Below, in pieces: positions 9,916 through 54,537 of a stretch of 64,000 nucleotides of DNA (the first letter of the stretch is position 1; each line of letters begins with the position of its first letter). This DNA is from Thermoleophilia bacterium SCSIO 60948 (GTDB lineage: Bacteria; Actinomycetota; Thermoleophilia; Solirubrobacterales; 70-9). Both the position numbers and the translations under genes were made by a program. The stretch is from contig CP053031.1 of assembly GCA_021496505.1 (NCBI GenBank), positions 1,116,001 to 1,180,000 on the forward strand, in the 5' to 3' direction. The notes beneath the pieces were generated by a model. The model was not told where the DNA came from. It did no database searches and saw only the letters and a program-made list of their open reading frames with translations.

Positions 9916-9918
9916 GCG

Positions 9919-9938
9919 GACCGTCGCGACGCGCGGTC
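9919..9938. terminator. Small hairpin between convergent fbiC and cofE
   Basis: GACCG pairs with CGGTC around a 10-base loop in the 27-base gap between two convergent stop codons. There is no T-run, so termination is only a suggestion. Confidence 0.25.
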
Positions 9939-9942
9939 GGCG

Positions 9943-14116: not shown

Positions 14117-14517
14117 CGGGCACGAGGGAGCGCAACAGCGACGGTTTCCGCCACGCCGTCGAGAGCGGTGATTTCGGCGGGATCGATCGCCTCTTCTCGC
14201 CCCAGGTCGTGTTCCGCAGCCCGGCGGTGTTCGCGCCGTACGAGGGCATCGAGGTCGTCCGCGCGCTCCTGACCGCCGTCGGTCACGTCTTCGAGGACTT
14301 CCACTACCTCGAGCAGGTCGAGTCCGAGGATGGCCGCTTCGCGACGCTCCTCTTCGAGGCGCGGGTCGGCGATCGCGACGTGCAGGGCGTCGACCTGCTC
14401 TGGTTCGACGCGGAGGGCCTGATCGCCGAGATGACGGTGATGGTGCGACCCCTGTCCGGCCTGAACGCGCTTGTCGAAGCGATGGGACGCATGCTCGGCG
14501 GCGCCTCGGCGAGCTAG
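14113..14517 (+). CDS. SnoaL/NTF2-like small protein
   Basis: This 134-residue protein has the SnoaL-like pattern: a helical start, then FSPQVVFRSPAVFAPYEGIEVV and a beta-rich second half. The fold makes a cone-shaped pocket used by cyclases, isomerases and binding proteins; no catalytic set lets me choose. Its ATG overlaps the lyase stop by 4 bases, so it is co-translated with it and may act on or bind a related acyl compound, which is inference. Confidence 0.65.
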   Translation: MTGTRERNSDGFRHAVESGDFGGIDRLFSPQVVFRSPAVFAPYEGIEVVRALLTAVGHVFEDFHYLEQVESEDGRFATLLFEARVGDRDVQGVDLLWFDAEGLIAEMTVMVRPLSGLNALVEAMGRMLGGASAS

Positions 14518-14578
14518 CTCGCGGCCGGGCGGAACGTTGCCCCGGCGGGTTGCGGTGGCGCTCCGCCCGCTCGTTTTC

Positions 14579-14584
14579 TAGCCT
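14579..14584 (+). promoter_or_regulatory. -10 box TAGCCT, leaderless start of the DivIVA-like gene
   Basis: TAGCCT ends 6 bases before ATG 14591. Confidence 0.55.
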
Positions 14585-14590
14585 GGACGC

Positions 14591-15697
14591 ATGGACAAGG
14601 ACTCGATCGAACGGATCCGCACCGCGACCTTCCCGCTGGCGCGTCGCGGTTACGACCGCCGTGAGGTCGATCGCTTCCTGGCCCGGCTCGCCGAATGGCT
14701 CGAGGCCGACGCGCCGGAGCCGGTCGCGGTTCCCACCGAACCACCCGAGCCGCCCGAGGCCGTGCGCCAGGCGCTGGCCGAGGTCGGTGAGCGGACGGCG
14801 GCGATCCTGCTGGCCGCCGAGGAGGCCGCGAGCACGATGCGCTCGGAGGCCGAGGCCGAGGTCAAGGCACTCCGCGAGGAAGTGGAGACGAGCACCCGCA
14901 AAGAGCGCGAGCAGGCCGACGAGTACGCGACCGACAAGCGCACGAGCGCCGAGACCGAGGCCGAGCGCACGCGGGTCGATGCCGACTCCTATTCGGCCGA
15001 GATCCGCGAGGGCTCCGACACCTACGCACAGACGACACGGCGCCAGGCTGACCAGTACGCCTCCGAGGTCAAGGGCGAGATCGACGCGATGGCCGAGAAG
15101 GCGCGGGCCGAGACCGAGGCCAAGGAGGCCGATGCGCGCGAGCGGATCGAGCGCTACGAGGCCGAGGAGATGGAGCAGGCGCGTCTGCGCGCCAAGGCGA
15201 TGATCGACGAGGCGACCGCACGCCGCGACGAGATCGAGGCCGAGATCGTCCAGCTCGGCGAGCGCCGAGACAGCGTCCTCGAGGGGATCCGCAGGCTGAC
15301 GAGCGAGCTGACGGGCACCGCGTCCTCGCACGCGCCGGCGGCGTCGCTCGCCACCGCGGCGGCCGAGGTCCAGGCCGAGGCCGACGCCGAGGAGGCCGCC
15401 GACGCCGCCGCCGAGGCGGACCCCGAGGACGAGCTCATCGAGGACGAGGTCGCCGAGGGCGAGGCCGAGCTCGCGGATGAGGACGACGGAGGGGCGGAGG
15501 ACGAGGCGCCGGTGGTGAGCGCGGGCGACCCCGACGCGACCCAGACGTTCCGCCCCGACTTCGACAACGGTGAGCCGCCGACCGACGAGCACCGACCCGG
15601 CGAGGTCGAGGTGGAGGTCGAGGCCGATCCGGTCGACGAGCCCGGCCCGGACTCGGCCGAGGCCGAGACCACCGTCCACCGGATTCCCGAGCGGTGA
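14591..15697 (+). CDS. DivIVA-like coiled-coil protein with a long acidic tail
   Basis: The N-terminus (FPLARRGYDRREVDRFL, about 15-31) is the lipid-binding DivIVA domain that recognises curved membranes at poles and septa. Residues about 60-240 form a long charged coiled coil rich in Glu, Ala and Arg. The final 120 residues are almost pure Glu/Asp/Ala/Pro and probably disordered. The stop overlaps the start of an acyl-CoA carboxylase beta subunit by 4 bases. DivIVA (Wag31) contact with acyl-CoA carboxylase has been reported in mycobacteria, so this coupling may be meaningful. Total length is 368 residues. Confidence 0.8.
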   Translation: MDKDSIERIRTATFPLARRGYDRREVDRFLARLAEWLEADAPEPVAVPTEPPEPPEAVRQALAEVGERTAAILLAAEEAASTMRSEAEAEVKALREEVETSTRKEREQADEYATDKRTSAETEAERTRVDADSYSAEIREGSDTYAQTTRRQADQYASEVKGEIDAMAEKARAETEAKEADARERIERYEAEEMEQARLRAKAMIDEATARRDEIEAEIVQLGERRDSVLEGIRRLTSELTGTASSHAPAASLATAAAEVQAEADAEEAADAAAEADPEDELIEDEVAEGEAELADEDDGGAEDEAPVVSAGDPDATQTFRPDFDNGEPPTDEHRPGEVEVEVEADPVDEPGPDSAEAETTVHRIPER

Positions 15698-17232
15698 GCG
15701 AGACCGAGGCCTCCTCCGACGTCGAGCGGGCGAATCGGGCGGCGCTGGGCGGCGGTCCCGAGCGCCATCACGCCAAGCTCGCCGAGCAGGACAAGCTCGA
15801 GGTGCGCGCACGCGTCGAGCTGCTGCTCGACGCCGGAAGCTTCAGCGAGGAGGGCCTGCTCGCCAACTGGGAGCAGGAGGGGCTCGGCGCCGACGGCGTC
15901 GTGACGGGGATCGGGCGGGTCGGCGGCCGCGCGGTATGCCTGATGGCCAACGATCCGACCGTCAAGGCCGGCTCGTGGGGCCCGAAGACCGTCGAGAAGA
16001 TCCTGCGGATCCAGGAGCGAGCGCTGGCGCTCGAGTTGCCGATGCTCTACCTCGTCGACTCAGCGGGAGCCCGGATCACCGATCAGGTCCGGATGTTCCC
16101 CGGTCGCCGCGGGGCCGGGCGGATATTCCACAACCAGGTCCGCATGTCGGGGACGGTGCCGCAGATCTGCGTCCTGTTCGGGCCGTCGGCTGCGGGCGGC
16201 GCCTACATCCCGGCGTTCTGCGACGTGGTGATCATGCGTGACGGCAACGCCTCGATGTACCTCGGATCGCCGCGAATGGCCGAGATGGTCATCGGCGAGA
16301 AGGTCACCCTCGAGCAGATGGGTGGCGCGCGGATGCACACCGGCGTCTCGGGCTGCGGGCACTTCCTCGCCAAGTCCGATGAGGAGGCGATCGACACCGC
16401 GGTGCGCTGGCTCTCCTACCTGCCTTCGAGCTGGCGCGCCGAGCCACCTCCGGCGGCTCCCGCCGAGCCGGCCTCGGACCGCGCCCCGAGCGAGATCATC
16501 CCCGCCGACGAGCGCACCCCGTTCGACATCCGCGATCTGATCGGCGCGATCACCGACGCGGAGTCGTTCACCGAGTATCAGGCGCGCTGGGCGAAGGAGA
16601 TCGTCTGCGGGCTCGCCCGACTCGACGGGCAGTCGATCGGGATCGTGGCCAATCAGCCGCGCCAGCGTGGGGGAGTGCTGTTCGCCGACTCGGCCGACAA
16701 GGCGGCGCGGTTCATCTGGACCTGCAACGCCTTCAACGTCCCGCTGCTCTTCCTCGCCGACGTCCCGGGGTTCATGATCGGCTCGGAGGTCGAGCGCGGC
16801 GGAATCATCCGCCACGGGGCAAAGATGATCTCGGCCGTCTCGGAGGCGACGGTGCCGAAGATCTCCGTGATCGTCCGCAAGGCCTACGGCGCCGGGCTCT
16901 ACGCGATGGCCGGACCCGCCTTCGAGCCCGACGCGTGCATCGCCCTGCCGGGCGCCCGGATCGCGGTGATGGGGCCGGAGGCGGCGATCAACGCCGTGTT
17001 CTTCAACCAGGTCCAGGCGATCACCGACGAGGACGAGCGGGCCGAGTTCGTCCGCGCCAAGCGCGACGAGTACGTCGCCGACATCGACGTCCTCCACCTC
17101 GCCTCCGAGCTCGTCATCGACGCGATCGTCGAGCCCGACGCGCTGCGCGAGGACCTCAAGCGGCGCTTCGCGGCCGCGGCCGGCAAGGACCGCTCGTTCT
17201 CCGAGCGCCACAACCCGGTGACGCCGGTTTGA
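15694..17232 (+). CDS. Acyl-CoA carboxylase, carboxyltransferase (beta) subunit
   Basis: The 512-residue crotonase-fold enzyme moves a carboxyl group from carboxybiotin to an acyl-CoA. Both halves are complete: the N-terminal GPSAAGGAYIPAFCD oxyanion region and the C-terminal FLADVPGFMIGSEVERGGII and RKAYGAGLYAMAGPAF. It resembles AccD/PccB/MccB proteins; the specific acyl-CoA (propionyl, acetyl, methylcrotonyl) cannot be told from motifs. No biotin-carrying alpha subunit is adjacent. It overlaps the DivIVA-like gene (GTGA) and the next gene (TTGA). Confidence 0.9.
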   Translation: MSETEASSDVERANRAALGGGPERHHAKLAEQDKLEVRARVELLLDAGSFSEEGLLANWEQEGLGADGVVTGIGRVGGRAVCLMANDPTVKAGSWGPKTVEKILRIQERALALELPMLYLVDSAGARITDQVRMFPGRRGAGRIFHNQVRMSGTVPQICVLFGPSAAGGAYIPAFCDVVIMRDGNASMYLGSPRMAEMVIGEKVTLEQMGGARMHTGVSGCGHFLAKSDEEAIDTAVRWLSYLPSSWRAEPPPAAPAEPASDRAPSEIIPADERTPFDIRDLIGAITDAESFTEYQARWAKEIVCGLARLDGQSIGIVANQPRQRGGVLFADSADKAARFIWTCNAFNVPLLFLADVPGFMIGSEVERGGIIRHGAKMISAVSEATVPKISVIVRKAYGAGLYAMAGPAFEPDACIALPGARIAVMGPEAAINAVFFNQVQAITDEDERAEFVRAKRDEYVADIDVLHLASELVIDAIVEPDALREDLKRRFAAAAGKDRSFSERHNPVTPV

Positions 17233-35848: not shown

Positions 35849-37651
35849 GTGGCATTCATGAGTCCAGCGGATCCGCCCGTCGATCTCGACGAGTGGAGCC
35901 GCCGAACGCATCTCGAGCGCATCATCCCGGCGGCGCGGGACTGGGCCGAGAACGGCTCCGGTGTACCGAGCGCGGTCTACCTGCTCTACATCGTCAAGCT
36001 CGTCGTCTTCTCGGTCGCCGGCCTCGCGATCATCGGCGCGACGTCGGACCTCGGCGGCCTCGGTTCGATCGGCGAGTGGTGGACCGAGCCGATCGTCTTC
36101 CAGAAGCTCTGCGTCTGGTTGATCCTGTGGGAGATCCTCGGGCTCGGGTGCGGGTCGATGCCGCTCACGTTCCGCTTCATCCCGCCGATCGGCGGCGCGC
36201 TCTACTGGCTGCGACGCGGAACGGTACGCCAGCCGCCGTGGCCGGACCGGGTGCCGCTCACGGCCGGGACGACCCGGACCCCGCTCGACGTCGCGCTCTA
36301 CATCGGAGTGCTCGGAGTTCTGGTGTACCTGCTCGTCGCCGGCGGCTCCGGGTCGGTGATCCCCGACGGGGCTCCGACCCTGCTTCCGGTCGAGCCGAGC
36401 CCCGATCTGCTCCCGGTCGGCGGGATCCTCGCTCTTCTGGCACTGCTCGCCGCACTCGGCCTGCGCGACAAGGTCGCGTTTCTCGCCGCCCGGCCCGAGG
36501 TCTACCTGCCGCTGCTGATCGTCGCCTGCTTCCCGCCGGAGACGATGATCGTCGGCTGGCAGTTCGTCTTCCTGTGCATCTGGCTCGGCGCGGCCAGCTC
36601 GAAGCTCAACCGCCACTTCCCGTTCGTCGTCTCGGTGATGATCTCCAACACGCCGTGGAACCGCTCGCGGCGGATGAAGCGAGACCTCTACAAGGGCTTT
36701 CCGGACGACCTGCGACCGGGGCGCAATGCGGCCTTCGCGGCACACCTCGGGACGGTCATCGAGTTCACCCTGCCGCTGATCCTGTTCTTCGGGCCAGGCG
36801 GTCTCATCGGGACGGTCGCGGTGATCGGGATGCTGATCTTCCACGTCCACATCACGTCGACGTTCCCGCTCGCCGTCCCGCTCGAGTGGAACCTGTTCAT
36901 GCTCTTCGGGATCGTCTTCCTGTTCGGTCACTACGGCGACGTCCCGCTCTCGACCTTCGACCCGCTCCTGCTTGCGATCCTGCTCTGCACGTCGGTCGCG
37001 CTGCCGGTCCTCGGCAACCTGATGCCGGACAAGATCTCGTTCCTGCCCTCGATGCGCTACTACGCCGGCAACTGGGCGACGAGCCAGTGGCTGTTCCGCC
37101 GCGAGGGTGACGCCGAGGGCAAGCTCGACGCGGGCGTGAAGAAGCCGGCCGCGGCGGTGATCGAGCAGCTGAGCCGGCTCTACGGACGCCAGATGGCCGA
37201 GTACCTGCTCTACAAGGGGCTCGCCTTCCGCTCGATGCACCACCACGGCCGAGCGCTCAACGGCCTCGTCTTCCGCGCGGCCGACGGTGACGTCGAGTCC
37301 TTCCACGTCCGCGAGGGCGAGCTCGTGTCGGGGATCGTCAACGGTTGGAACTTTGGCGACGGCCACCTCCACGACGAGGGCCTGTTGCAAGCCGTCCAGG
37401 AGCGTTGCGGGTTCGCGCCCGGCGAGCTGCGGGTCGTCTGCCTCGAGTCGCAGCCGGTCCAGGTCCAGCGCCAGCGCTACCGGATCCTCGACGCCGCCGA
37501 CGGGCTGATCGAGGAGGGGACGATCGAGGTCGCCGACATGTGCTCGCGCCAACCGTGGCTCGACGGACGCGATGGCGAGTTCCCGGTGACGGTGACCGGT
37601 CCGGGCGCCGTCGCGGTGGGCGATCGCCCCGTCACCGCGGCCGGCGCGTAG
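35849..37651 (+). CDS. DUF3556 integral membrane protein
   Basis: The 600-residue protein matches the DUF3556 family known from mycobacteria: an N-terminal LERIIPAARDW segment, about eight membrane helices, ISNTPWNRSRRMKRDLYKGF, STFPLAVPLEWNLF, then a soluble C-terminal domain of about 230 residues. Function is not established; the membrane half recalls HTTM/gamma-carboxylase-like proteins. It has its own strong Shine-Dalgarno, GGAGGAGGGG. A phytoene-desaturase-like oxidoreductase follows after 6 bases, so the two probably act in one lipid or isoprenoid pathway (inference). Confidence 0.82.
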   Translation: MAFMSPADPPVDLDEWSRRTHLERIIPAARDWAENGSGVPSAVYLLYIVKLVVFSVAGLAIIGATSDLGGLGSIGEWWTEPIVFQKLCVWLILWEILGLGCGSMPLTFRFIPPIGGALYWLRRGTVRQPPWPDRVPLTAGTTRTPLDVALYIGVLGVLVYLLVAGGSGSVIPDGAPTLLPVEPSPDLLPVGGILALLALLAALGLRDKVAFLAARPEVYLPLLIVACFPPETMIVGWQFVFLCIWLGAASSKLNRHFPFVVSVMISNTPWNRSRRMKRDLYKGFPDDLRPGRNAAFAAHLGTVIEFTLPLILFFGPGGLIGTVAVIGMLIFHVHITSTFPLAVPLEWNLFMLFGIVFLFGHYGDVPLSTFDPLLLAILLCTSVALPVLGNLMPDKISFLPSMRYYAGNWATSQWLFRREGDAEGKLDAGVKKPAAAVIEQLSRLYGRQMAEYLLYKGLAFRSMHHHGRALNGLVFRAADGDVESFHVREGELVSGIVNGWNFGDGHLHDEGLLQAVQERCGFAPGELRVVCLESQPVQVQRQRYRILDAADGLIEEGTIEVADMCSRQPWLDGRDGEFPVTVTGPGAVAVGDRPVTAAGA

Positions 37652-37657
37652 ACGCCC

Positions 37658-39073
37658 GTGGCCGAGGCGTTCGTCGTCGGTTCGGGCCCCAACGGGCTCG
37701 CGTGCGCCGCCGCTCTCGCGACCCGCGGCGTCAGGGTCACGGTGGTCGAGGCCGCGGAGCGGATCGGCGGTGGGACCCGAACGAGCGAGCTCACGCTGCC
37801 CGGCCTGCTCCACGACGAGTGCTCGGCCTTCCACCCGATGGCGCTCGGCTCGAAGGCGATCGTCGACCAGGATCTCGCCCGCCACGGGCTCGAGTGGCTC
37901 TGGCCGGAGATCGACCTCGCCCACCCGCTCGACGACGGGGGCGCCGCGGCGATGCACCGTTCGATCGATCGGACCGCCGCCGGGCTCGGGGCTGACGGCG
38001 CGGTCTGGAAGCGCCTCTTCGCGCGGCCGTCGCGCGGCTTCGAGGCGCTGTCGGAGGACGTGATGCGACCGGTGCTCCACCTGCCGCGCCATCCGCTGCG
38101 GCTCGCCCGCTTCGGCATCCCGGCGGCGCTGCCGGCGACCGTGCTCGCGCGGAGCTTCCCGACGGCGCGGGGGAGGGCGCTGTTCGGCGGCTCGGCCGCG
38201 CACGCGTTCAGCCGCCTCGACACCCCGATGAGCGCGGCGGTCGGCGTCGCGCTGATCTGCTCCTCCCACGCCTACGGCTGGCCCGTCGCGCGCGGAGGAT
38301 CGCGAGCGATCTCAGACGCGCTCGCGGCCGTCGTGGTCGAGAACGGTGGCAGCGTCGAGACCGGGCGGCGCGTGCGCTCGCTGGGAGAGCTGCCGAAGAC
38401 CGACGCTGTGGTGCTCGACCTCGCGCCGCGCGGGGTCGTCGAGGTCGCGGGCGATCGCCTCCCGGTTCGGGTCAGGCGGGCCTACGAGCGCTATCGCCAC
38501 GGGCCGGGCGCGTTCAAGCTCGACCTCGCGGTCGAGGGCGGCATCCCGTGGACGGCGGAGGAGCCGCGGCGAGCCGGGTCGGTCCACCTCGGCGGGACGA
38601 TGGCCGAGATAGCGGCCGCCGAGCGCGACGTGAACCGCAGCCGGATGCCCGAGCGCCCGTTCGTCCTCGTCGGCCAGCAATACCTGGCCGACCCCTCGCG
38701 CTCGAATGGCGACACGCACCCGATCTGGGCCTACGCCCATGTGCCGCACGGCTACGAAGGCGATGCAACGGAGCCGATCCTCGGCCAGCTCGAGCGTTTC
38801 GCGCCGGGGGTTCGTGAGCGCGTCCTCGCGATCCACTCGACCTCGCCGGCGCAGATCGAGGCCCAGAACCCGAACCTGATCGGCGGCGACATCATCACCG
38901 GCGCGAACACGCCGGTTCAGACGCTGATCCGGCCGCGTCTCGCGCTCGACCCGTATCGCACGGGAGTGCCGGGCGTCTGGGTCTGCTCGGCCGCAACGCC
39001 TCCAGGGGCCGGAGCGCACGGAATGAACGGCTGGAACGCCGCGATGTCGGTGCTCGGCGAGCTCGGGGACTAG
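37658..39073 (+). CDS. FAD-dependent phytoene desaturase-like oxidoreductase
   Basis: The 471-residue flavoprotein has an N-terminal FAD loop VVGSGPNGLACAAALATRGV followed by the GGGTRT motif of the CrtI/amine oxidase superfamily, and a C-terminal FAD region PGVWVCSAATPPGAGAHGMNG. The family covers carotenoid desaturases, isomerases and saturases; this branch is not a classical CrtI and the substrate is unknown. It sits directly behind DUF3556 and its TAG stop shares CTAG (39070-39073) with the convergent flippase-like gene. Confidence 0.82.
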   Translation: MAEAFVVGSGPNGLACAAALATRGVRVTVVEAAERIGGGTRTSELTLPGLLHDECSAFHPMALGSKAIVDQDLARHGLEWLWPEIDLAHPLDDGGAAAMHRSIDRTAAGLGADGAVWKRLFARPSRGFEALSEDVMRPVLHLPRHPLRLARFGIPAALPATVLARSFPTARGRALFGGSAAHAFSRLDTPMSAAVGVALICSSHAYGWPVARGGSRAISDALAAVVVENGGSVETGRRVRSLGELPKTDAVVLDLAPRGVVEVAGDRLPVRVRRAYERYRHGPGAFKLDLAVEGGIPWTAEEPRRAGSVHLGGTMAEIAAAERDVNRSRMPERPFVLVGQQYLADPSRSNGDTHPIWAYAHVPHGYEGDATEPILGQLERFAPGVRERVLAIHSTSPAQIEAQNPNLIGGDIITGANTPVQTLIRPRLALDPYRTGVPGVWVCSAATPPGAGAHGMNGWNAAMSVLGELGD

Positions 39074-40731: not shown

Positions 40732-41664
40732 TTGTCTGACCGAGCGCCACAGAACGGCATGGTCGAGCTGCCCGGGGGCGAGTTCCTCATGGGCTCGGAC
40801 CGGCACTATCCCGAGGAGGCCCCGGCCCGGCGGGTCGCGGTCGATCGATTCGAGATCGATGCCCACGCGGTGACGGTCGAGCAGTACGCCGCGTTCGTCG
40901 AGGACACCGGGTACGTGACCGTGGCCGAGCGCCCGCTTGACCCGGCGGACTATCCGGGGGCGGACCCATCGCTGCTCGTTCCCGGCTCGCTGGTCTTCCA
41001 GCGCACCCCGGGCCCGGTCCCGCTCGACGACTACCGGCGCTGGTGGGCATACATGCCGGGCGCGAGCTGGCGATCGCCGGAGGGCGAGGGGACGAGCGTC
41101 GCCGGCCGCGAGCGCCATCCCGTGACGCAGGTCGCCCACGAGGACGCCGCCGCCTACGCGGAGTGGGCGGGCAAGTCGCTGCCGTCCGAGGCCGAGTGGG
41201 AGTACGCGTGCCGCGGTGGGATCGAGGGCGCCGCCTACGCCTGGGGCGAGGACGAGAAGCCCGGCGGCCAGCTGATGGCGAACACCTGGCAGGGCGACTT
41301 CCCGTGGCGAAACGCGCGTGCGAAGGGCTACGCCGGGACCTCGCCCGTCGCGACCTTCCCGCCGAACCCGTTCGGTCTCTACGACGTGACCGGGAACACC
41401 TGGGAGTGGACCGACGACTTCTTCTCGCTTCCGGAGGATGCGACCGAGAGTCCGTGCTGCGTCCCGCGCAACCCACGCGTCGAGTCGGCCGAGGGGAGCT
41501 ACGAGCGCGGTCGCCCGGGCGAGACGATCCCGCGGCGCGTCATCAAGGGGGGGTCGCACCTGTGCTCTCCCCAGTACTGCCTGCGCTTCCGTCCCGCGGC
41601 GCGTCAGGGCGAGCAGATCGACAGCGCGACGACTCACATCGGCTTCCGCTGCCTGCGGCGCTGA
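40732..41664 (+). CDS. Formylglycine-generating enzyme (sulfatase activator)
   Basis: The 310-residue enzyme oxidises the active-site cysteine of type I sulfatases to formylglycine. The copper-binding cysteine pair is present: Cys278 and Cys283 in GGSHLCSPQYCLRFRPAAR, matching the human and Streptomyces enzymes. VELPGGEFLMGSD, SLPSEAEWEYACRGG and GNTWEWTDDFF are fold markers. It starts at TTG with a Shine-Dalgarno. The sulfatase it would activate is the next gene. Confidence 0.93.
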   Translation: MSDRAPQNGMVELPGGEFLMGSDRHYPEEAPARRVAVDRFEIDAHAVTVEQYAAFVEDTGYVTVAERPLDPADYPGADPSLLVPGSLVFQRTPGPVPLDDYRRWWAYMPGASWRSPEGEGTSVAGRERHPVTQVAHEDAAAYAEWAGKSLPSEAEWEYACRGGIEGAAYAWGEDEKPGGQLMANTWQGDFPWRNARAKGYAGTSPVATFPPNPFGLYDVTGNTWEWTDDFFSLPEDATESPCCVPRNPRVESAEGSYERGRPGETIPRRVIKGGSHLCSPQYCLRFRPAARQGEQIDSATTHIGFRCLRR

Positions 41665-41680
41665 GTGCCCGCGATCGTCA

Positions 41681-41705
41681 TTAGTTGACCGACTCAGTCA
41701 ACTAA
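41681..41705. promoter_or_regulatory. 25-bp palindromic operator upstream of the sulfatase gene
   Basis: TTAGTTGAC and GTCAACTAA are perfect 9-base arms around CGACTCA; including the inner bases the two 12-base arms match at 11 positions around a central C. It lies just upstream of TACTCT, where a repressor would block RNA polymerase. Shape and size resemble TetR-family sites. No regulator gene is adjacent. Confidence 0.7.
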
Positions 41706-41709
41706 TCGC

Positions 41710-41715
41710 TACTCT
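41710..41715 (+). promoter_or_regulatory. -10 box TACTCT of the sulfatase gene
   Basis: TACTCT ends 9 bases before ATG 41725 and begins 4 bases after the palindrome. Confidence 0.5.
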
Positions 41716-41724
41716 CGCCCGCTG

Positions 41725-43068
41725 ATGCCCGAGCGCCCGAACGTCCTCTACCTGCACTCCCACGACACGGGGCGCTACGTCCAGCCCTACGGCTACGGCG
41801 TCCCGACGCCGAACATCCAGCTGCTGGCCGACCAGGGGGTGCTGTTCCGCCAGGCGTTCTGCGCCGGGCCGACCTGCTCGGCCTCCCGTTCGGCGCTGCT
41901 GACCGGCCAGTATCCGCACCAGAACGGGATGAACGGTCTCGCGCACCGCGGCTGGGCGCTCGACGACCCTTCCAGACACATCGTCCATCCGCTGCGCGAC
42001 GCGGGCTACCGGTCGGTCCTGATCGGCGAGCAGCACGTCTCCGAGGACCCTGGGATCCTCGGCTACGACGAGGTCCTCGACGTCGATTCGACCCGCGCCG
42101 AGGACGTCGCCCCGCTCGCCATCGACGCGCTGGCCGAGGCCGCGGACGCGGACTCGCCGTTCTTCATGTCGGTCGGGTTCTTCGAGACCCACCGCCAGTT
42201 CACCGTCCCGACATCGGTCCGCGACACGCTCTACTCGCTGCCGCCGCCCAACATCCCCGACACGCCGCAGACCCGCGAGGACATGGCCGCGTTCAAGGCC
42301 TCGGCGCGCGAGCTCGACCAGGGCGTCGGCGCCGTGTTGAACGGACTCGCGAGAGCGGGACTCGCCGAGTCGACGCTCGTGATCTGCACCACCGACCACG
42401 GCCTGCCCTTCCCGGGGGCCAAGGCGACGCTGTTCGATCGCGGCACCGGGGTGCTGATGATCCTGCGCGGGCCCGGAGGCTTCGACGGCGGCCGCGTGAT
42501 CGACCCGATGGTCAGCCACCTCGATCTCTATCCGACGATCTGCGAGCTCGCCGGGGCCGTGCCACGTCACCGGCTCGAGGGCGCCTCGCTGCTGCCGCTC
42601 GTCGCCGACGAGGTCCCCGAGCTGCACCGGGAGATCTACGCCGAGATGACCTACCACGCCGCCTACCAGCCGCAACGCTCCGTCCGCACGAATCGATGGA
42701 AATACATCCGTCGTTTCGGGGCATACGACAAGCCCGTGCTCGCGAATTGCGACGACTCCGCCTCGAAGCAGGTCCTGATCGACGCCGGCTGGGGAACGCG
42801 CCCGGTCGCCGAGGAGCGCCTCTACGACCTGATCAGCGACCCGAGCGAGTCGAACAACCTCGTCGCCAACCCGGCCTGCGCGCGTGAGCTCGGGCTGCTG
42901 CGCGCGAAACTCGAGGCCTGGATGCGCGAGACGCGCGATCCATTGCTCGACGGGCCGATCGCGCCGCCGCCCGGCGCGCTGTTCAACCTGCCCGAACAGC
43001 GTTCGGCGGAGGAGCCGCCGAGCGTCGCCGGCGCGCACCCGTTCGACACGGTCCCGGTGGGGCGATGA
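41725..43068 (+). CDS. Type I sulfatase, sulfamidase-like
   Basis: The 447-residue hydrolase removes sulfate from an ester or amide. Cys51 in CSASR is the residue converted to formylglycine by the enzyme encoded upstream, with the following SALLTGQYPHQNGM typical. TTDHGLPFPGAKATLFDRG resembles N-sulfoglucosamine sulfohydrolase-type sulfatases. The metal-binding start reads HSHDTGRY instead of the usual DDLG. No signal peptide is seen, so it probably acts in the cytoplasm. It overlaps a sulfotransferase gene by 4 bases. Confidence 0.92.
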   Translation: MPERPNVLYLHSHDTGRYVQPYGYGVPTPNIQLLADQGVLFRQAFCAGPTCSASRSALLTGQYPHQNGMNGLAHRGWALDDPSRHIVHPLRDAGYRSVLIGEQHVSEDPGILGYDEVLDVDSTRAEDVAPLAIDALAEAADADSPFFMSVGFFETHRQFTVPTSVRDTLYSLPPPNIPDTPQTREDMAAFKASARELDQGVGAVLNGLARAGLAESTLVICTTDHGLPFPGAKATLFDRGTGVLMILRGPGGFDGGRVIDPMVSHLDLYPTICELAGAVPRHRLEGASLLPLVADEVPELHREIYAEMTYHAAYQPQRSVRTNRWKYIRRFGAYDKPVLANCDDSASKQVLIDAGWGTRPVAEERLYDLISDPSESNNLVANPACARELGLLRAKLEAWMRETRDPLLDGPIAPPPGALFNLPEQRSAEEPPSVAGAHPFDTVPVGR

Positions 43069-43979
43069 GCCGCGCCGAGCGCTCCTACCTCGTCTGCTCG
43101 ACCCAGCGCAGCGGCTCGACGCTCGTCTGCGAGGCGCTCAAGCAGTCCGGTGTCGCGGGCGTGCCCGAGGAGTACTTCGAAGCGCTGCGCCGGTCGGGTC
43201 GCCGTCGGCGGCCCGAGGAGTACTTCCACGGCGTCGACGATCCGTCGATCCTCGACCACCTCGGCGAGCGCGAGATCGGCGAGACCGAGCAGCAGCGCTC
43301 GCCGCTGTGGAGCCGGGCCGCCTACGACCGCTATCTCGAATGGGCGGTCGAGCAGGGCACCGGGCCGAACGGCGTCTTCGGCGCCAAGCTGATGTGGAAC
43401 TACCTCGGCGACTTCGTCGGACTGCTGCGAAACGTCCCCGCCTACCGCGACCTGCCGCTCAAGGACCTGTTCGGCGAGGTGTTCCCGAACCTGACGTTCG
43501 TCCGCGTCGTCCGCGCGAACAAGATCCGCCAGGCGGTCTCGCTGTGGAAGGCGGTGCAGACGGCGACCTGGTCGCAGAAGAAGTCCGAGCACTCCGCCGA
43601 AGGGCCGCCGTACCGCGACTTCTTGTCGGAGAACCGGCCCCAGCTGCGCTTCCACTACCGCGCGATCGACCACCTGCTCCAGCAGCTCCTGGCCGATGAG
43701 GCGATGTGGGACGCCTTCTTCGAGCACGTCCGGATCAAGCCGATCCTCGTCCTGCACGAGAACTTCGCCGCCGATCCGCAGGCGTCGACCGAGAACATCC
43801 TGCAGCGGCTCGAGATCGAGGTCCCGGAAGGGTTCGTCTTCAAGCCCGAGATGAAGGCGCAGTCCGACGGTCTCAACGACGACTGGGCCCGCCGATATTC
43901 GGAGCTGCGGCTCGGACGCGAGCTCGATCTCGTGCCCGCCGTCCCGGAGGGCGAGCTCAGCCAGGGCTCGTTCGGCTGA
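43065..43979 (+). CDS. Stf0-family sulfotransferase
   Basis: The 304-residue enzyme transfers sulfate from PAPS. STQRSGSTLVCEAL (12-25) is the 5'-phosphosulfate loop and VVRANKIRQAVSLWKA the 3'-phosphate site, both as in Stf0, the mycobacterial trehalose 2-sulfotransferase. The acceptor here is unknown; trehalose or another sugar is a fair guess. It is translationally coupled (ATGA) to a sulfatase, so one transcript makes enzymes that add and remove sulfate. Confidence 0.88.
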   Translation: MSRAERSYLVCSTQRSGSTLVCEALKQSGVAGVPEEYFEALRRSGRRRRPEEYFHGVDDPSILDHLGEREIGETEQQRSPLWSRAAYDRYLEWAVEQGTGPNGVFGAKLMWNYLGDFVGLLRNVPAYRDLPLKDLFGEVFPNLTFVRVVRANKIRQAVSLWKAVQTATWSQKKSEHSAEGPPYRDFLSENRPQLRFHYRAIDHLLQQLLADEAMWDAFFEHVRIKPILVLHENFAADPQASTENILQRLEIEVPEGFVFKPEMKAQSDGLNDDWARRYSELRLGRELDLVPAVPEGELSQGSFG

Positions 43980-48738: not shown

Positions 48739-48839
48739 CCCGCGTACGGGCGCGGTGCCATCGCGCCGCGAACCCTGCTTATATGGGCTTTAGGCGATGC
48801 GCCCGGGCCATGGGTGGGCTCGAGGACTGGGAGGTAGTG

Positions 48840-50273
48840 GTGGCGGACTCGACTGGGCAGGGTGGGGGCGGAGATGCCGCCTATCTCGAGAAGCGCCAGC
48901 TGAAGCGCGGGGCCGCGGGCTGGGTGCTCCTGGCCGGGCTCGGCGTGGCGTACGTCATCTCCGGCGACTTCGCCGGCTGGAACTTCGGTCTCGCCGAGGG
49001 CGGTTTCGGCGGTCTGCTGATCGCGACGATCCTGATGGCGACGATGTACAGCTGCCTCGTGCTCGGCCTCGCCGAGATGTCCTCGGCGCTGCCGGTGACC
49101 GGCGCGGGCTACGGATTCGCGCGTCGCGCGCTCGGTCCGCTCGGCGGTTTCGCCACCGGCACTGCGATCCTGATCGAGTACGCGATCGCGCCCGCCGCGA
49201 TCGTCACGTTCATCGGCGGCTACGTCGAGGCGCTGGGGATCTTCGGCCTCGAATCGGGCTGGCCGCTCTACCTCGTCTTCTACGCGATCTTCGTCGGCAT
49301 CCACATCTTCGGAGTCGGCGAGGCGCTCAAGCTGATGTTCGCGATCACCGCGATCGCCGCCGTCGCGCTCATCGTCTTCATCGTCTCGATGATCCCGCAG
49401 TTCGACACCGCCAACCTGACCGACATCGCGGCGACGAACGCCGCCGGCGCCAGCGACTTCCTGCCGTTCGGTATCGCGGGCATCCTGGCCGCGTTCGTCT
49501 ACGGGATCTGGTTCTTCCTCGCCGTGGAGGGCGTCCCGCTCGCCGCCGAGGAGAGCCGCAACCCCACGCGCGACATGCCCCGTGGCCTGATCGCGGCGAT
49601 GCTGACGCTGCTCGTGTTCGCCGGTCTGATCCTGGTCTTCGGCCCGGGCGGCGCGGGCGCTTCGACGATCGCCGAGTCCGACAACCCGCTGCCGCAGGCG
49701 CTCGGCGCCGCGCTCGGCGACGGGTTCGTCCGCGACTTCGTCAACTACGCCGGGCTGGCGGGACTGGTCGCGAGCTTCTTCTCGATCATCTATGCGTACT
49801 CGCGCCAGTTGTTCGCGCTCTCGCGCGCCGGCTACCTGCCGACCGGCCTCTCGGTCACGACCTCCCGGCGCACGCCGGCGATCGCGCTCATCGTGCCGGG
49901 CCTGATCGGGTTCCTGCTCGCCGCGATCACCGAGGACGGCGCGCTGCTGATCAACATCGCGGTCTTCGGAGCCACGGTCTCCTACGTCCTGATGCTCGTC
50001 TCGCACATCGTGCTGCGAAGCAAGGAGCCGAACCTCGAGCGCCCATACAAGACCCCGGGTGGCGTCCTGACGACCGGGATCGGCCTCGTGCTCGCCATCG
50101 CCGCGGTGATCGCGACGTTCTTCGTCGACGAGCTGGCAGCCGGAATCACGGCGGCCGTGTTCCTCGCCTTCATGGCCTACTTCTGGTTCTACAGCCGCCA
50201 CCATCTCGTCGCCTCGGCTCCCGAGGAGGAGTTCGACGCGATCGAGAAGGCCGAGTCGCAGCTGGCGGGCTAG
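48840..50273 (+). CDS. APC-superfamily permease, ethanolamine permease-like
   Basis: The 477-residue transporter has about 12 helices. VISGDFAGWNFGLAEGGFGG and TMYSCLVLGLAEMSSALPVTGAG are close to the ethanolamine permease (Eat) family rather than generic amino acid permeases. GTG 48840 is chosen because GGGAGG lies about 5 bases upstream; ATG 48810 is an alternative. It begins a five-gene cluster whose other members fit gamma-glutamylation of the imported amine. The substrate is inferred from family and context. Confidence 0.85.
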   Translation: MADSTGQGGGGDAAYLEKRQLKRGAAGWVLLAGLGVAYVISGDFAGWNFGLAEGGFGGLLIATILMATMYSCLVLGLAEMSSALPVTGAGYGFARRALGPLGGFATGTAILIEYAIAPAAIVTFIGGYVEALGIFGLESGWPLYLVFYAIFVGIHIFGVGEALKLMFAITAIAAVALIVFIVSMIPQFDTANLTDIAATNAAGASDFLPFGIAGILAAFVYGIWFFLAVEGVPLAAEESRNPTRDMPRGLIAAMLTLLVFAGLILVFGPGGAGASTIAESDNPLPQALGAALGDGFVRDFVNYAGLAGLVASFFSIIYAYSRQLFALSRAGYLPTGLSVTTSRRTPAIALIVPGLIGFLLAAITEDGALLINIAVFGATVSYVLMLVSHIVLRSKEPNLERPYKTPGGVLTTGIGLVLAIAAVIATFFVDELAAGITAAVFLAFMAYFWFYSRHHLVASAPEEEFDAIEKAESQLAG

Positions 50274-50276
50274 TCG

Positions 50277-51620
50277 ATGGCCGAGCCCGCGATGACGCTC
50301 GACGAGCTCCGCGCGAAGGCGGCGGACGGGTCCGTCGACACCGTTCTGCTCGCGATCGCCGACATGGAGGGTCGGGTCCAGGGCAAGCGCCTGACGGCAC
50401 CGTTCTTCCTCGAGGAGATCGTCGGCCACGCCGCGGAGGGCTGCAACTACCTGCTCGCCGTCGACGTCGACATGGAGACGGTCGACGGCTACGAGATGAG
50501 CTCGTGGTCGTCGGGCTACGGCGACTTCGAGATGGTCCCCGACCTCTCGACGCTGCGGCCGGTCCCGTGGCTCGAGGGCACGGTCATCGTGATGGCCGAC
50601 GTCCAATGGCATGACGGCTCGCCCGTCGTCGCGTCGCCGCGCCAGATCCTCCGGCGCCAGCTCGACCGGCTCGCCGAGCGCGGCTGGAAGGCGATGGCGG
50701 GCACCGAGCTCGAGTTCATCGTCTTCAAGGACACCTACGAGGACGCCTGGCGGGGCGCCTATCGCGACCTCGAGCCGGCCAACCTCTACAACATCGACTA
50801 CTCGCTGCTGGGCACCGCGCGCGTCGAGCCGCTGATCCGTCGGATCCGCAACTCGATGATGGGCGCCGGGATGAAGGTCGAGGACTCGAAGGGCGAGTGC
50901 AACTTCGGCCAGCACGAGGTCAACTTCCACTTCGGCGAGGCGCTCGCGACCTCCGACCAGCACGTGATCTACAAGAACGGCGCCAAGGAGATCGCCTCGC
51001 AGGAGGGGATGTCGCTGACGTTCATGGCGAAGTTCGACGAGCGCGAGGGCAGCTCGTGCCACATCCACTGCTCGCTCGCCGACGATTCGGGTCAGAACGC
51101 GTTCGCCGAGGACGACACGCTGTTCGATCGCTTCGTCGCCGGTCAGGTCGCGTGCATGCGCGACATGACCTTGTTCTTCGCGCCGCAGATCAACTCCTAC
51201 AAGCGCTTCGCGAAGGGCTCGTTCGCTCCGACGGCGGTCGCCTGGGGCCACGACAACCGCACCTGCTCGTTGCGCGCCGTCGGCCATGGTGGCGGGCGCC
51301 GGATCGAGAACCGCCTGCCGGGCGCCGACGTCAACCCGTACCTGGCGTTGGCGGCGATGATCGCCTCGGGACTGCACGGGATCGACAACGAGCTCGAGCT
51401 CGAGCCTCCGATGGAGGGGTCGGCCTACGACTCCGACGCGCCGACCGTGCCGCGGACGATGTACGAGGCACGCGAGCTCTTCGGTGCCTCGGAGGTCGCG
51501 CGTGAGGCGTTCGGCCAGGAGGTCGTCGACCACTATCTGAACCGGGCTCGCGTCGAGCTCGAGGCGCATGAGACCGCGGTGACCGACTGGGAACGGTTCC
51601 GCGGCTTCGAACGTTTGTAG
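50277..51620 (+). CDS. Glutamine synthetase-like gamma-glutamyl ligase (GlnA4-like)
   Basis: The 447-residue protein has the type I fold: GTELEFIVF, FGQHEVNFHF (metal glutamates), GSSCHIHCSL (catalytic His region), NSYKRF and GRRIENRLPGADVNPYLALAA. It lacks the adenylylation loop of true GlnA. In Streptomyces a member of this subfamily, GlnA4, makes gamma-glutamylethanolamide; the permease just upstream, 3 bases away, supports that role. Polyamine or another amine remains possible. Confidence 0.83.
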   Translation: MAEPAMTLDELRAKAADGSVDTVLLAIADMEGRVQGKRLTAPFFLEEIVGHAAEGCNYLLAVDVDMETVDGYEMSSWSSGYGDFEMVPDLSTLRPVPWLEGTVIVMADVQWHDGSPVVASPRQILRRQLDRLAERGWKAMAGTELEFIVFKDTYEDAWRGAYRDLEPANLYNIDYSLLGTARVEPLIRRIRNSMMGAGMKVEDSKGECNFGQHEVNFHFGEALATSDQHVIYKNGAKEIASQEGMSLTFMAKFDEREGSSCHIHCSLADDSGQNAFAEDDTLFDRFVAGQVACMRDMTLFFAPQINSYKRFAKGSFAPTAVAWGHDNRTCSLRAVGHGGGRRIENRLPGADVNPYLALAAMIASGLHGIDNELELEPPMEGSAYDSDAPTVPRTMYEARELFGASEVAREAFGQEVVDHYLNRARVELEAHETAVTDWERFRGFERL

Positions 51621-51623
51621 CGT
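51618..51623 (+). promoter_or_regulatory. Internal -10 box TAGCGT, using the ligase stop codon
   Basis: TAGCGT starts with the TAG stop of the ligase gene and ends 7 bases before ATG 51631, so the downstream genes may also be transcribed separately as a leaderless mRNA. Confidence 0.5.
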
Positions 51624-51630
51624 CAGGGCC

Positions 51631-52362
51631 ATGAGCACCGACCTGCCGGTCATCGGCATCTGCGCGGCCGTCGAGCGCGTGCGCTGGGCCGCCTGGAACG
51701 AGACCGTGGTGATGGCGCCCCGCTCCTACGCCCACGCCGTCCAGCGGGCGGGCGCACTCGCCCTCCTGCTGCCGCCCGACGACGGTGGCGCCGGGCGCCG
51801 GGCGGCGCTGCTCGACCAGATCGACGGGCTCCTGCTGGCCGGCGGTTCGGACATCGACCCGGCGCTCTACGGCGCTGAGCCCCACCCCGAGACGAAGGGC
51901 GTCTGGCCCGAGCGTGACGAGTTCGAGCGCGACCTCACCCTCGAGGCGCTCGAGCGCGGGATGCCGATCCTCGGCATCTGCCGCGGGATGCAGGTCCTCA
52001 ATGTGGCGCTCGGCGGCAGCCTCAGCCAGCACCTGCCGGAGATCGTCGGCCACGGCGATCACCGCCACACGCCTGGAACGTTCGGCGACCACGAGGTCGT
52101 GCTCGATCCCGGCTCGCTGGCCGAGCGGGCCGCGGGCGGCCGGCGCCGGCTCGGCGTCAAGTCCCATCACCACCAGGGCGTCGACCGGATCGCCCCTGGG
52201 CTGCGGGTCTCCGGACACGCGGTCGAGGACGAGACGGTGGAGGCGCTCGAGCTTCCCGGGCATCCGTTCTGCCTCGGGGTCCTGTGGCATCCCGAGGAGG
52301 ACGTCGAGGATGCGGTCATCGGCGCGCTGGTCACGGCGAGCCGCTCACTCGTGGAGGTCTGA
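51631..52362 (+). CDS. Class I glutamine amidotransferase-like hydrolase (PuuD-like)
   Basis: The 243-residue enzyme has Cys117 in GICRGMQVLN and His220/Glu222 in LWHPEED, the catalytic triad of gamma-glutamyl-GABA hydrolase PuuD. SHHHQGVDRIAPGL is also typical. Here it would release glutamate and the oxidised amine product, glycine if the amine is ethanolamine. ATG overlaps nothing upstream, but its stop overlaps the aldehyde dehydrogenase ATG by one base. Confidence 0.87.
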   Translation: MSTDLPVIGICAAVERVRWAAWNETVVMAPRSYAHAVQRAGALALLLPPDDGGAGRRAALLDQIDGLLLAGGSDIDPALYGAEPHPETKGVWPERDEFERDLTLEALERGMPILGICRGMQVLNVALGGSLSQHLPEIVGHGDHRHTPGTFGDHEVVLDPGSLAERAAGGRRRLGVKSHHHQGVDRIAPGLRVSGHAVEDETVEALELPGHPFCLGVLWHPEEDVEDAVIGALVTASRSLVEV

Positions 52363-53774
52363 TGAGCGCTGGAACCATCGAGGTCATCGAACCCGCGACC
52401 GGCGCTCCGATGGCGAGCATCGAGCGCGCGGGCGCGGAGGACGTCGACGCCGCCGTCGAGCGGGCGCGCCGGGCGCTGCCGGCCTGGCGGGCGATGGCCC
52501 CGGCCGCCCGGGCCGAGTTGCTCTACGGACTCGCCGACCGGATCGACGCCGAGCGCGAGCACGTCGCGCGGATCGAGGCCCGGAACGCCGGCAAGCCGAT
52601 CTCCGACGCGCGCGGTGAGATCGGCATGGTCGCGGCGACGTTCCGCTACTACGCCGGCGGGGTCGAGCGCCTCACCGGCCGCACGATCCCGGTGGCGGGC
52701 GGTGTCGACATGACCTTCCGGGAGCCGCTCGGGGTCGTCGGTCTGATCACGCCGTGGAACTTCCCAGCCGCGATCGCGTCGTGGAAGCTCGCGCCGGCGC
52801 TCGCCGCCGGCAACACCGTCGTCCTCAAGCCGGCGGAGCTGACGCCGCTCTCGGCGCTCGAGCTCGAGCGGATCGCGCTCGAGGCGGGTCTGCCCGACGG
52901 CGTGATGAACGTCGTCGCGGGGCCCGGCTCGACCTGCGGCTCGCGTCTGGTCTCGCACCCTGACGTCGCCAAGATCGGCTTCACCGGCTCGACCGAGGTC
53001 GGCCGCTCGATCGCGGCCGCCGCCGCCGATCAGATCAAGCGGGTGACGCTCGAGCTCGGCGGGAAGTCGGCCAACGTCGTCTTCGCCGACGCCGACATCG
53101 AGGCGGCCGCGGCGGCCGCGCCCTCGGCGGTCTTCGGCAACGCCGGTCAGGACTGCTGCGCGCGCTCGCGGATCCTCGTCGAGCGCCCCGTCGTCGACGA
53201 GTTCATGGCCGCGCTCGAGCGCTCCGTCGCCGCGATCGACGTCGGCGACCCGCTCAGCGAGGACACCGAGATGGGGCCGCTGATCTCTGCCGCGCACCGC
53301 TCCGAGGTCGCCGCCTACCTGGACACGGGGCTCGACGTCGCGATCCGCGGCTCGGCGCCCGAGGGGGACGGCTTCTGGTTCGCGCCGGCGGTGCTCGCTC
53401 CGGCCTCCAACGACGATCGCGCCGCGCGCGAGGAGATCTTCGGACCGATCGCCTGCGTGATCCCGTTCGACGGCGAGGCGGAGGCGGTGCGGCTCGCCAA
53501 CGACACGATCTACGGGCTGTCCGGCTCGATCTGGACCGAGAACGGCGGCCGAGCGCTGCGCGTCGCGCGTCAGATCGAGACCGGCGTGCTGTCGATCAAC
53601 TCGAACAGCTCGGTCAGGGTCGCGACTCCGTTCGGCGGCTTCAAGCAATCGGGCTACGGTCGTGAGCTCGGACCCGACGCCCTCGACCACTACACCGAGG
53701 TCAAGAACGTCTACTTCGCCACCGGTGAGCCCGAACCGGCGGCCGAACCCGATCGCGACGAGCTGGGCAGCTAG
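52362..53774 (+). CDS. NAD(P)-dependent aldehyde dehydrogenase (PuuC/BetB type)
   Basis: The 470-residue enzyme has catalytic Cys265 (GQDCC), general base Glu231 (LELGGKS), TPWNFP and FTGSTEVG of the cofactor site. In this operon it would oxidise a gamma-glutamyl aldehyde to the acid before the hydrolase removes glutamate. Betaine or aminobutyraldehyde dehydrogenases are close relatives, so motif alone does not fix the substrate. TGATG coupling to the upstream hydrolase; an SDR gene follows. Confidence 0.88.
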   Translation: MSAGTIEVIEPATGAPMASIERAGAEDVDAAVERARRALPAWRAMAPAARAELLYGLADRIDAEREHVARIEARNAGKPISDARGEIGMVAATFRYYAGGVERLTGRTIPVAGGVDMTFREPLGVVGLITPWNFPAAIASWKLAPALAAGNTVVLKPAELTPLSALELERIALEAGLPDGVMNVVAGPGSTCGSRLVSHPDVAKIGFTGSTEVGRSIAAAAADQIKRVTLELGGKSANVVFADADIEAAAAAAPSAVFGNAGQDCCARSRILVERPVVDEFMAALERSVAAIDVGDPLSEDTEMGPLISAAHRSEVAAYLDTGLDVAIRGSAPEGDGFWFAPAVLAPASNDDRAAREEIFGPIACVIPFDGEAEAVRLANDTIYGLSGSIWTENGGRALRVARQIETGVLSINSNSSVRVATPFGGFKQSGYGRELGPDALDHYTEVKNVYFATGEPEPAAEPDRDELGS

Positions 53775-53784
53775 GAGGCCAGGG

Positions 53785-54537
53785 ATGGCAGGACGTTTGG
53801 CCGACAAGGTCTGCGTGATCACCGGCGCCGCGAGCGGGATCGGAGCCGAGTCCGCGCGACTGTTCCGCGCCGAGGGGGCGACGGTCGTCGGCGTCGATCT
53901 GAGCCCGGGCGCCGAGGGCGATCTCGCGATCGCCGCCGACGTCTCCGACGAGGCTCAGGTCGAGGCGATGTACGCGCGGGCGGTCGAGGAGTTCGGCCGC
54001 ATCGACGTCCTGTTCAACAACGCCGGCATCAACCCGCCCGACGACGTCTCCGTGGTCGACGAGCCCGAGGAGGTCTTCGAGCGCGTCCAGCGGATCAACG
54101 TCCGCAGCGTCTTCCTGTGCTGCAAGCACGGGATCCCGCACCTGCTCGAGTCGGGTGGCGGCTCGATCGTCAATACGGCGTCGTTCGTCGCGACGATGGG
54201 GGCGGCGGTCTCGCAGATCTCCTACACCGCCTCGAAGGGCGCGGTGCTGGCGCTCTCGCGCGAGCTCGGGGTCGAGTACGCGCGGCGCGGCGTGCGGGTC
54301 AACGCGCTCTGCCCGGGGCCGGTCGACACGCCGTTGCTCCGCGAGCTCTTCCTCTCCGACCCCCGCAAGGCCGCGCGGCGCCTCGTCCACCTGCCGATGG
54401 GCCGCTTCGCCGAGGCACGCGAGATCGCGCAGGGCGCGCTCTTCCTCGCCTCGGACGACTCCTCCTACATCACCGCCTCGACGTTCATGGTCGACGGCGG
54501 GCTGTCCTCCGCCTACATCACGCCGGAACAGGAGTAG
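53785..54537 (+). CDS. Short-chain dehydrogenase/reductase
   Basis: The 250-residue SDR has TGAASGIG (13-20) for NAD(H), NNAG (78-81) and the catalytic set Ser133, Tyr147, Lys151 (YTASK). Asp38 in VVGVDLS favours NAD(H). AGGAGG lies 6 bases before ATG 53785. As the last gene of the cluster it could oxidise the alcohol of gamma-glutamylethanolamide to the aldehyde, a step needed before the aldehyde dehydrogenase acts. This role is inferred. Confidence 0.87.
   Translation: MAGRLADKVCVITGAASGIGAESARLFRAEGATVVGVDLSPGAEGDLAIAADVSDEAQVEAMYARAVEEFGRIDVLFNNAGINPPDDVSVVDEPEEVFERVQRINVRSVFLCCKHGIPHLLESGGGSIVNTASFVATMGAAVSQISYTASKGAVLALSRELGVEYARRGVRVNALCPGPVDTPLLRELFLSDPRKAARRLVHLPMGRFAEAREIAQGALFLASDDSSYITASTFMVDGGLSSAYITPEQE

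What the first reader, a model, noticed from the sequence alone, without database searches (positions are those of the whole stretch)
40732..43979. Sulfate-on/sulfate-off cassette: FGE, sulfatase and Stf0 sulfotransferase
The sulfatase has the CSASR site that the neighbouring FGE would activate, and it is translationally coupled to a Stf0-type sulfotransferase. Genes that add and remove sulfate from one transcript suggest a reversible sulfated metabolite or sulfur store, or remodelling of a sulfated glycolipid. No signal peptides are visible, so both may act in the cytoplasm.
Basis: partly seen in the sequence, partly recalled or inferred. Interest (0 to 1): 0.7.

Follow-up and report, generated by a model that had tools for sequence, protein, structure and literature searches.

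The report
Conserved sulfate-adding/removing gene pair
An enzyme that attaches sulfate and an enzyme that removes it are kept side by side in many actinobacteria, inside the sulfur-supply machinery, which suggests the cells make and then take back a sulfated small molecule, most likely a sugar such as trehalose.

Summary
The three genes are real: an FGE, an SGSH-like type I sulfatase (CSASR) and a Stf0 sulfotransferase; sulfatase and Stf0 overlap by 4 nt. The triplet is local: an FGE adjoins the pair only here and in one other genome. The pair is strongly conserved. In 61 relatives all 14 Stf0 genes adjoin the sulfatase. Across Actinomycetota I measured 27 adjacent loci in 26 genomes, in three orientations (5 sulfatase-first, 12 Stf0-first, 10 divergent). 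These Stf0s form one clade with mycobacterial Stf0, which makes trehalose-2-sulfate.

The pair belongs to sulfur metabolism: it is linked to APS kinase, CysDN, CysH, a sulfate transporter and TauE, and to a palindromic operator. That operator separates the FGE from the pair, so one three-gene transcript is doubtful.

Best explanation: Stf0 makes a cytosolic sulfate ester from PAPS, probably of trehalose or another sugar, and the sulfatase hydrolyses it. Linkage is shown; a shared substrate is inferred. Unexpectedly, most orthologues carry CSGSR, and 12 of 30 genomes (one complete) lack detectable FGE or anaerobic maturase. Closest known: M. tuberculosis Rv0295c/Rv0296c (AtsG), whose native substrate is unknown.

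The parts
40732..41664 (+). Formylglycine-generating enzyme (FGE), TTG start; only FGE found in this genome; a local neighbour of the pair, not a conserved one
   Evidence: PF03781 254.5 bits; PDB FGE E 1.3e-65; CSPQYC Cys pair; single copy in G000
41681..41705 (.). Perfect palindrome TTAGTTGAC-N7-GTCAACTAA, probable operator overlapping a TTGACC -35-like box of the pair's promoter
   Evidence: Unique in window and genome; top hit in 64 kb of a PWM trained on relatives' pair promoters
41725..43068 (+). SGSH-like (S1_8-like) type I sulfatase, no signal peptide
   Evidence: PF00884, PF16347; PDB 4mhx, 9bb9; orthologues A1
41875..41889 (+). Formylglycine motif C51-S-A-S-R55 (CSGSR in most orthologues)
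   Evidence: Sequence
43065..43979 (+). Stf0-family sulfotransferase, translationally coupled to the sulfatase
   Evidence: PF09037 165.5 bits; 1TEX E 1.4e-29; fold match rank 1; orthologues A2
43101..43121 (+). PAPS 5'-phosphosulfate-binding loop (T13-QRSGS-T19)
   Evidence: T13, R15-L20 invariant in A2
43512..43547 (+). PAPS 3'-phosphate-binding segment R150...V158-S159-L-W161, equivalent to R143, V151, S152 and W154 of 1TEX
   Evidence: Alignment to 1TEX; residues named in PMC10638397; invariant in A2

Best explanation
A two-gene module of the sulfur regulon that makes and unmakes one cytosolic sulfate ester. Sulfate is activated to PAPS (CysDN plus APS kinase). Stf0 moves the sulfuryl group from PAPS to a hydroxyl of a small abundant acceptor, most likely trehalose or a similar sugar. 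The SGSH-like sulfatase hydrolyses the same ester and returns free sulfate. The ester would serve as a sulfate buffer or turnover pool. A sulfur regulator of the Rrf2 type probably controls the pair through the palindromic operator. In this genome the adjacent FGE probably installs formylglycine in the sulfatase, but it is an optional neighbour. Shown: gene identities, conserved pairing, linkage to PAPS and sulfur genes, shared operator motif. Inferred: the common substrate, its identity, the buffer role, the regulator.
For: 14/14 Stf0 genes in 61 relatives adjoin the sulfatase. 27 adjacent loci in 26 genomes in three orientations, with short gaps or overlaps. Pair-linked Stf0s plus mycobacterial Stf0 form one clade, 25 of 27 adjacent to the sulfatase. 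APS kinase is linked to the pair in 7 of 9 f20 loci and directly follows Stf0 in G487; in family f2 it is present in 3/3 pair-positive and 0/9 pair-negative genomes. CysH, CysDN, TauE, CysPTWA and SsuABC-like genes nearby. Operator motif shared with sulfur genes, 17 sites against about 2 in shuffles. OtsA in 30/30 genomes with the sulfatase. The mycobacterial homologue makes trehalose-2-sulfate. Sulfatase, CysD2 and Stf0 of one Rhodococcus cluster rise together on dibenzothiophene (PMC8557817).
Against: No direct evidence that the sulfatase acts on the Stf0 product. The window Stf0 scores 185 against the cut-off of 400 for the trehalose 2-sulfotransferase equivalog. Co-expression of both enzymes would form a futile cycle unless one is controlled. 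The sulfatase exists without Stf0 in G005 and in outgroup phyla, and Stf0 is apart from the sulfatase in G155 and G207. The mycobacterial sulfatases are not sister to these ones. The OtsA background was not measured.
Confidence: 0.5

Rival explanations
1. Sulfate relay with different substrates: the sulfatase frees sulfate from imported or foreign sulfate esters, CysDNC/APS kinase turns it into PAPS, and Stf0 spends it on a separate sulfated product such as a glycolipid headgroup. The genes are neighbours because they are the first and last steps of one supply line.
For: In Rhodococcus the order is sulfatase-CysNC-CysD-Stf0 and the proteins rise when sulfate is not the sulfur source (PMC8557817). 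SsuABC-like and sulfate transporters lie nearby in g11 and G167. Outgroup sulfatases of this family occur without Stf0.
Against: Sulfatase and Stf0 stay adjacent even where the activation genes are elsewhere, as in the window genome. No signal peptide, so foreign esters would have to be imported.
Confidence: 0.25
2. Overflow valve: when organosulfur breakdown yields excess sulfite and sulfate, PAPS formation and Stf0 drain it into an exported or stored ester; the sulfatase recovers it later or limits it.
For: TauE/SafE exporters and a sulfite dehydrogenase lie beside the pair in several genomes. A sulfite-detoxification role for Stf0 was proposed in Rhodococcus (PMC8557817).
Against: Costs ATP; no exporter of an ester is consistently linked.
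Confidence: 0.12
3. Metabolite repair: the sulfatase removes sulfate wrongly placed by Stf0 on side substrates.
For: Same pairing and cytosolic location.
Against: Does not explain the sulfur-gene operator or the linkage of sulfatases of this family to sulfate transporters.
Confidence: 0.08
4. Chance neighbourhood of unrelated genes.
For: The triplet with FGE is indeed local, and most other neighbours are not conserved.
Against: The pair stays adjacent in three orientations across several families while other neighbours change.
Confidence: 0.02

Closest known systems
M. tuberculosis Rv0295c (Stf0, trehalose 2-sulfotransferase) and Rv0296c (AtsG arylsulfatase); homologous pair in Mycobacterium genomes G098 and G133
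   Same: Stf0 beside an SGSH-like sulfatase, sulfatase first, 65-67 nt apart in G098 and G133; Stf0s in one clade.
   Different: Mycobacterial Stf0 feeds sulfolipid-1 in M. tuberculosis; sulfatase motif CSPSR/CSPAR; the sulfatases are not sister clades; the native AtsG substrate is unknown (PMC3141025).
Rhodococcus qingshengii IGTS8 cluster peg167-170 (sulfatase, CysNC, CysD, Stf0; PMC8557817)
   Same: Sulfatase and Stf0 in one sulfur-responsive cluster with PAPS synthesis.
   Different: Activation genes lie between the two; sulfatase subfamily not checked here; described there as separate functions.
Human SGSH and bacterial S1_8 sulfatases
   Same: Closest solved relatives of the sulfatase; SGSH_C domain.
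   Different: Metal-site residues differ: H13-D14 and D224-H225 in place of the usual D-D and D-N; no signal peptide; substrate unknown.
Fungal choline-O-sulfate and choline sulfatase (own knowledge)
   Same: Works-like analogue: an intracellular sulfate ester made and reclaimed as a sulfur store.
   Different: Different enzymes and acceptor; the window sulfatase scores 119 bits against a cut-off of 433 for choline-sulfatase.

Membership tests
Stf0 sulfotransferase family (PF09037) | Match over the family cut-off and PAPS-binding residues | tested here: met
   165.5 vs 22 bits; R150, V158, S159, W161 and the SGST loop invariant
Trehalose 2-sulfotransferase equivalog (NF047724) | Score over the curated cut-off | tested here: not met
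   185 vs 400 bits
Trehalose 2-sulfotransferase equivalog (NF047724) | Sulfates trehalose at O-2 | not testable with these tools
   Needs an enzyme assay; OtsA present in the genome is only permissive
Type I (formylglycine) sulfatase | Sulfatase domain and C-x-[P/A]-x-R motif | tested here: met
   PF00884; CSASR. Most orthologues have CSGSR instead
Type I (formylglycine) sulfatase | A maturase in the same genome | tested here: met
   FGE adjacent here; but 12 of 30 genomes with the sulfatase show none
Type I (formylglycine) sulfatase | Usual metal ligands D-D and D-N | tested here: not met
   H13-D14 and D224-H225, invariant in A1
N-sulfoglucosamine sulfohydrolase (SGSH, S1_8) | Closest family by sequence | tested here: inconclusive
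   Best PDB hits 4mhx and 9bb9, SGSH_C 51 bits, but no S1_8 subfamily model was available
Formylglycine-generating enzyme | FGE domain and C-terminal Cys pair C-x4-C | tested here: met
   PF03781 254.5 bits; CSPQYC aligned with the Cys pair in A3
   FGE beside the pair only in G000 and G487; the pair alone is conserved

The most novel reading that the evidence does not exclude
A phylum-wide, sulfur-regulated sulfate-ester cycle in actinobacteria, in which a free cytosolic sugar sulfate (probably trehalose sulfate) is a managed sulfur pool rather than only a lipid precursor, and in which many sulfatases carry the unusual CSGSR motif and work without any known formylglycine maturase.
Probability: 0.25. 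Interest if true: 0.75.

Novelty: new variant of a known kind. Interest (0 to 1): 0.55.

Why it matters
Stf0 is known for starting sulfolipid-1 synthesis in M. tuberculosis, and the native substrate of its genomic neighbour AtsG is unknown. The conserved pairing in soil actinobacteria predicts that this sulfatase hydrolyses the Stf0 product, which one enzyme assay can test. If right, it would explain why a sulfated sugar could exist outside sulfolipid makers and would add a reversible sulfate pool to bacterial sulfur metabolism. The CSGSR motif and the missing maturases raise a separate question about how these sulfatases are activated.

Tried and rejected
I first read the palindrome as a MarR-type operator; its form and the neighbouring Rrf2 genes fit an Rrf2/IscR-like site better, but the regulator is not proven. 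Short profile hits (about 230 of 303 positions) in G029, G031 and G487 at first looked like non-FGE proteins; reading them showed the catalytic cysteines, so they were counted as FGE, while those in G101, G167, G187 and G332 are EgtB-like. The AlphaFold model of the sulfatase was too poor to use (mean pLDDT 48.7), so no fold search was run on it. Chance adjacency and the conserved triplet were rejected by the survey. The consensus promoter and terminator scan found nothing between 40600 and 44100. PF09037 loci in G171, G238, G202, G150, G336, G312, G091, G218 and G155:C50 show no sulfatase of this family nearby and fall outside the pair-linked clade, so they were set aside as other subfamilies.

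Full report
Observation. The FGE starts at TTG 40732 behind a good ribosome-binding site and has the two catalytic-type cysteines (CSPQYC). The sulfatase (41725-43068) has CSASR and is closest among solved structures to human SGSH and bacterial S1_8 enzymes. Stf0 (43065-43979) overlaps it by 4 nt and matches M. smegmatis Stf0 1TEX by sequence and fold. Its PAPS-binding residues, including the 3'PB set named in PMC10638397, are invariant in orthologues. Neither enzyme has room for a signal peptide, so both should be cytosolic (sequence).

What is conserved. The window lies in a 3.42-Mb single-contig genome close to a Solirubrobacterales MAG. In 61 genomes (the window's and 60 relatives, 28 genera), the Stf0 profile hits 14, once each (in pieces in G009), and every Stf0 adjoins the sulfatase orthologue. 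A phylum-wide draw found the same sulfatase in family f20, with Stf0 adjacent in all nine loci, and more distant sulfatases beside Stf0 in two of four mycobacterial genomes; two further genomes of the same order (G454, G487) came from a class-level Stf0 search. In 27 measured loci the order is sulfatase-Stf0 (5), Stf0-sulfatase (12) or divergent (10), never convergent, with overlaps or gaps of at most about 145 nt. Keeping two genes adjacent while their orientation changes argues for a functional link.

Trees. The pair-linked Stf0s and mycobacterial Stf0s form one clade (27 rows, support 94/97) apart from other PF09037 proteins. Of the 27, 25 are adjacent to the sulfatase; G155 and G207 carry both genes at separate loci. 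The sulfatases of the window's order and f20 form one clade (100/98), but the mycobacterial sulfatases are not their sisters. The pair is either ancient with losses or was assembled more than once from the same two families; the data do not decide.

What is not conserved. The FGE lies beside the pair only here and in G487 (about 1 kb away); elsewhere it is on other contigs or absent. A perfect palindrome, unique in the genome, sits between the FGE and the sulfatase. The pair therefore probably has its own promoter, although the consensus promoter scan found none.

Sulfur context. In f20 genomes the pair lies near APS kinase, ATP sulfurylase, CysH, sulfite reductase, a sulfite dehydrogenase, rhodanese and TauE, and in G167 next to CysPTWA. 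APS kinase is within about 3.5 kb of the pair in 7 of 9 f20 loci. In G487 Stf0 is followed directly by an APS kinase, then a CysJ-like reductase (by sequence), CysH, TauE, CysD and CysN. In genus g11 an Rrf2 regulator, TauE and an SsuABC-like transporter are nearby. In family f2, APS kinase is present in 3/3 pair-positive and 0/9 pair-negative genomes (exact one-sided p = 1/220, without correction for relatedness). The window genome has one APS kinase, unlinked. A PWM trained only on four relatives' sites ranks the window palindrome first in 64 kb and finds 17 sites in about 290 kb against about 2 in shuffles; by my reading 12 of the 17 are at the pair or at sulfur genes. Likeness to IscR/Rrf2 sites is from memory and is a lead only.

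Mechanism. Most likely Stf0 makes, and the sulfatase hydrolyses, the same small cytosolic sulfate ester. Trehalose is the leading acceptor because the mycobacterial clade member uses it and all 30 genomes examined with the sulfatase carry OtsA. Against this, the window protein is far below the trehalose equivalog cut-off, identity is low, and the OtsA background was not measured. A relay with different substrates is the main rival. Co-induction of a sulfatase, CysD and Stf0 in Rhodococcus on dibenzothiophene (PMC8557817) fits either model and also fits an overflow valve.

Unexpected. The sulfatase orthologues in the window's order and f20 carry CSGSR, apart from CSASR in the window, G454 and G487; mycobacterial ones have CSPSR or CSPAR. 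Of 30 genomes with the sulfatase, 17 have a true FGE, one an anSME and 12 neither, including the complete genome G101. Absence in MAGs is weak evidence; in G101 it is stronger. How these sulfatases are activated is open.

Known or new. Adjacent Stf0 and sulfatase genes are already implied by M. tuberculosis locus numbers (Rv0295c trehalose 2-sulfotransferase, PMC8006519; Rv0296c AtsG, PMC4734655). AtsG's native substrate is unidentified (PMC3141025). I found no paper in the held library that describes the pairing as a module; most subscription papers are not held, so novelty is provisional.

Noticed in passing
L162-L166 (f20), G101 and 11 other genomes: Sulfatases with C-S-G-S-R in genomes without detectable FGE or anaerobic maturase; activation unexplained.
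   Followed up: partly
L165:11821-13752 (-): One 644-aa ORF joins a Sulfotransfer_5 domain to PUA_2 and ATP-sulfurylase domains.
   Followed up: no
L061 (G011:C5) 8944-10304 and 13324-16408; window 35849-39073: A second, broken sulfatase copy without Stf0 lies about 3 kb from DUF3556 and CrtO-like genes (60-65% identical to the window's), the same two genes that lie near the pair in the window.
   Followed up: partly
window 48810-54537: Amino acid permease, glutamine synthetase-like, peptidase C26, aldehyde dehydrogenase and short-chain dehydrogenase in a row: looks like gamma-glutamyl-polyamine catabolism.
   Followed up: no
L048:9406-9426: A strong copy of the operator motif (20-22 bits) upstream of a gene not obviously linked to sulfur in G009, about 1.2 kb from the pair.
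   Followed up: no
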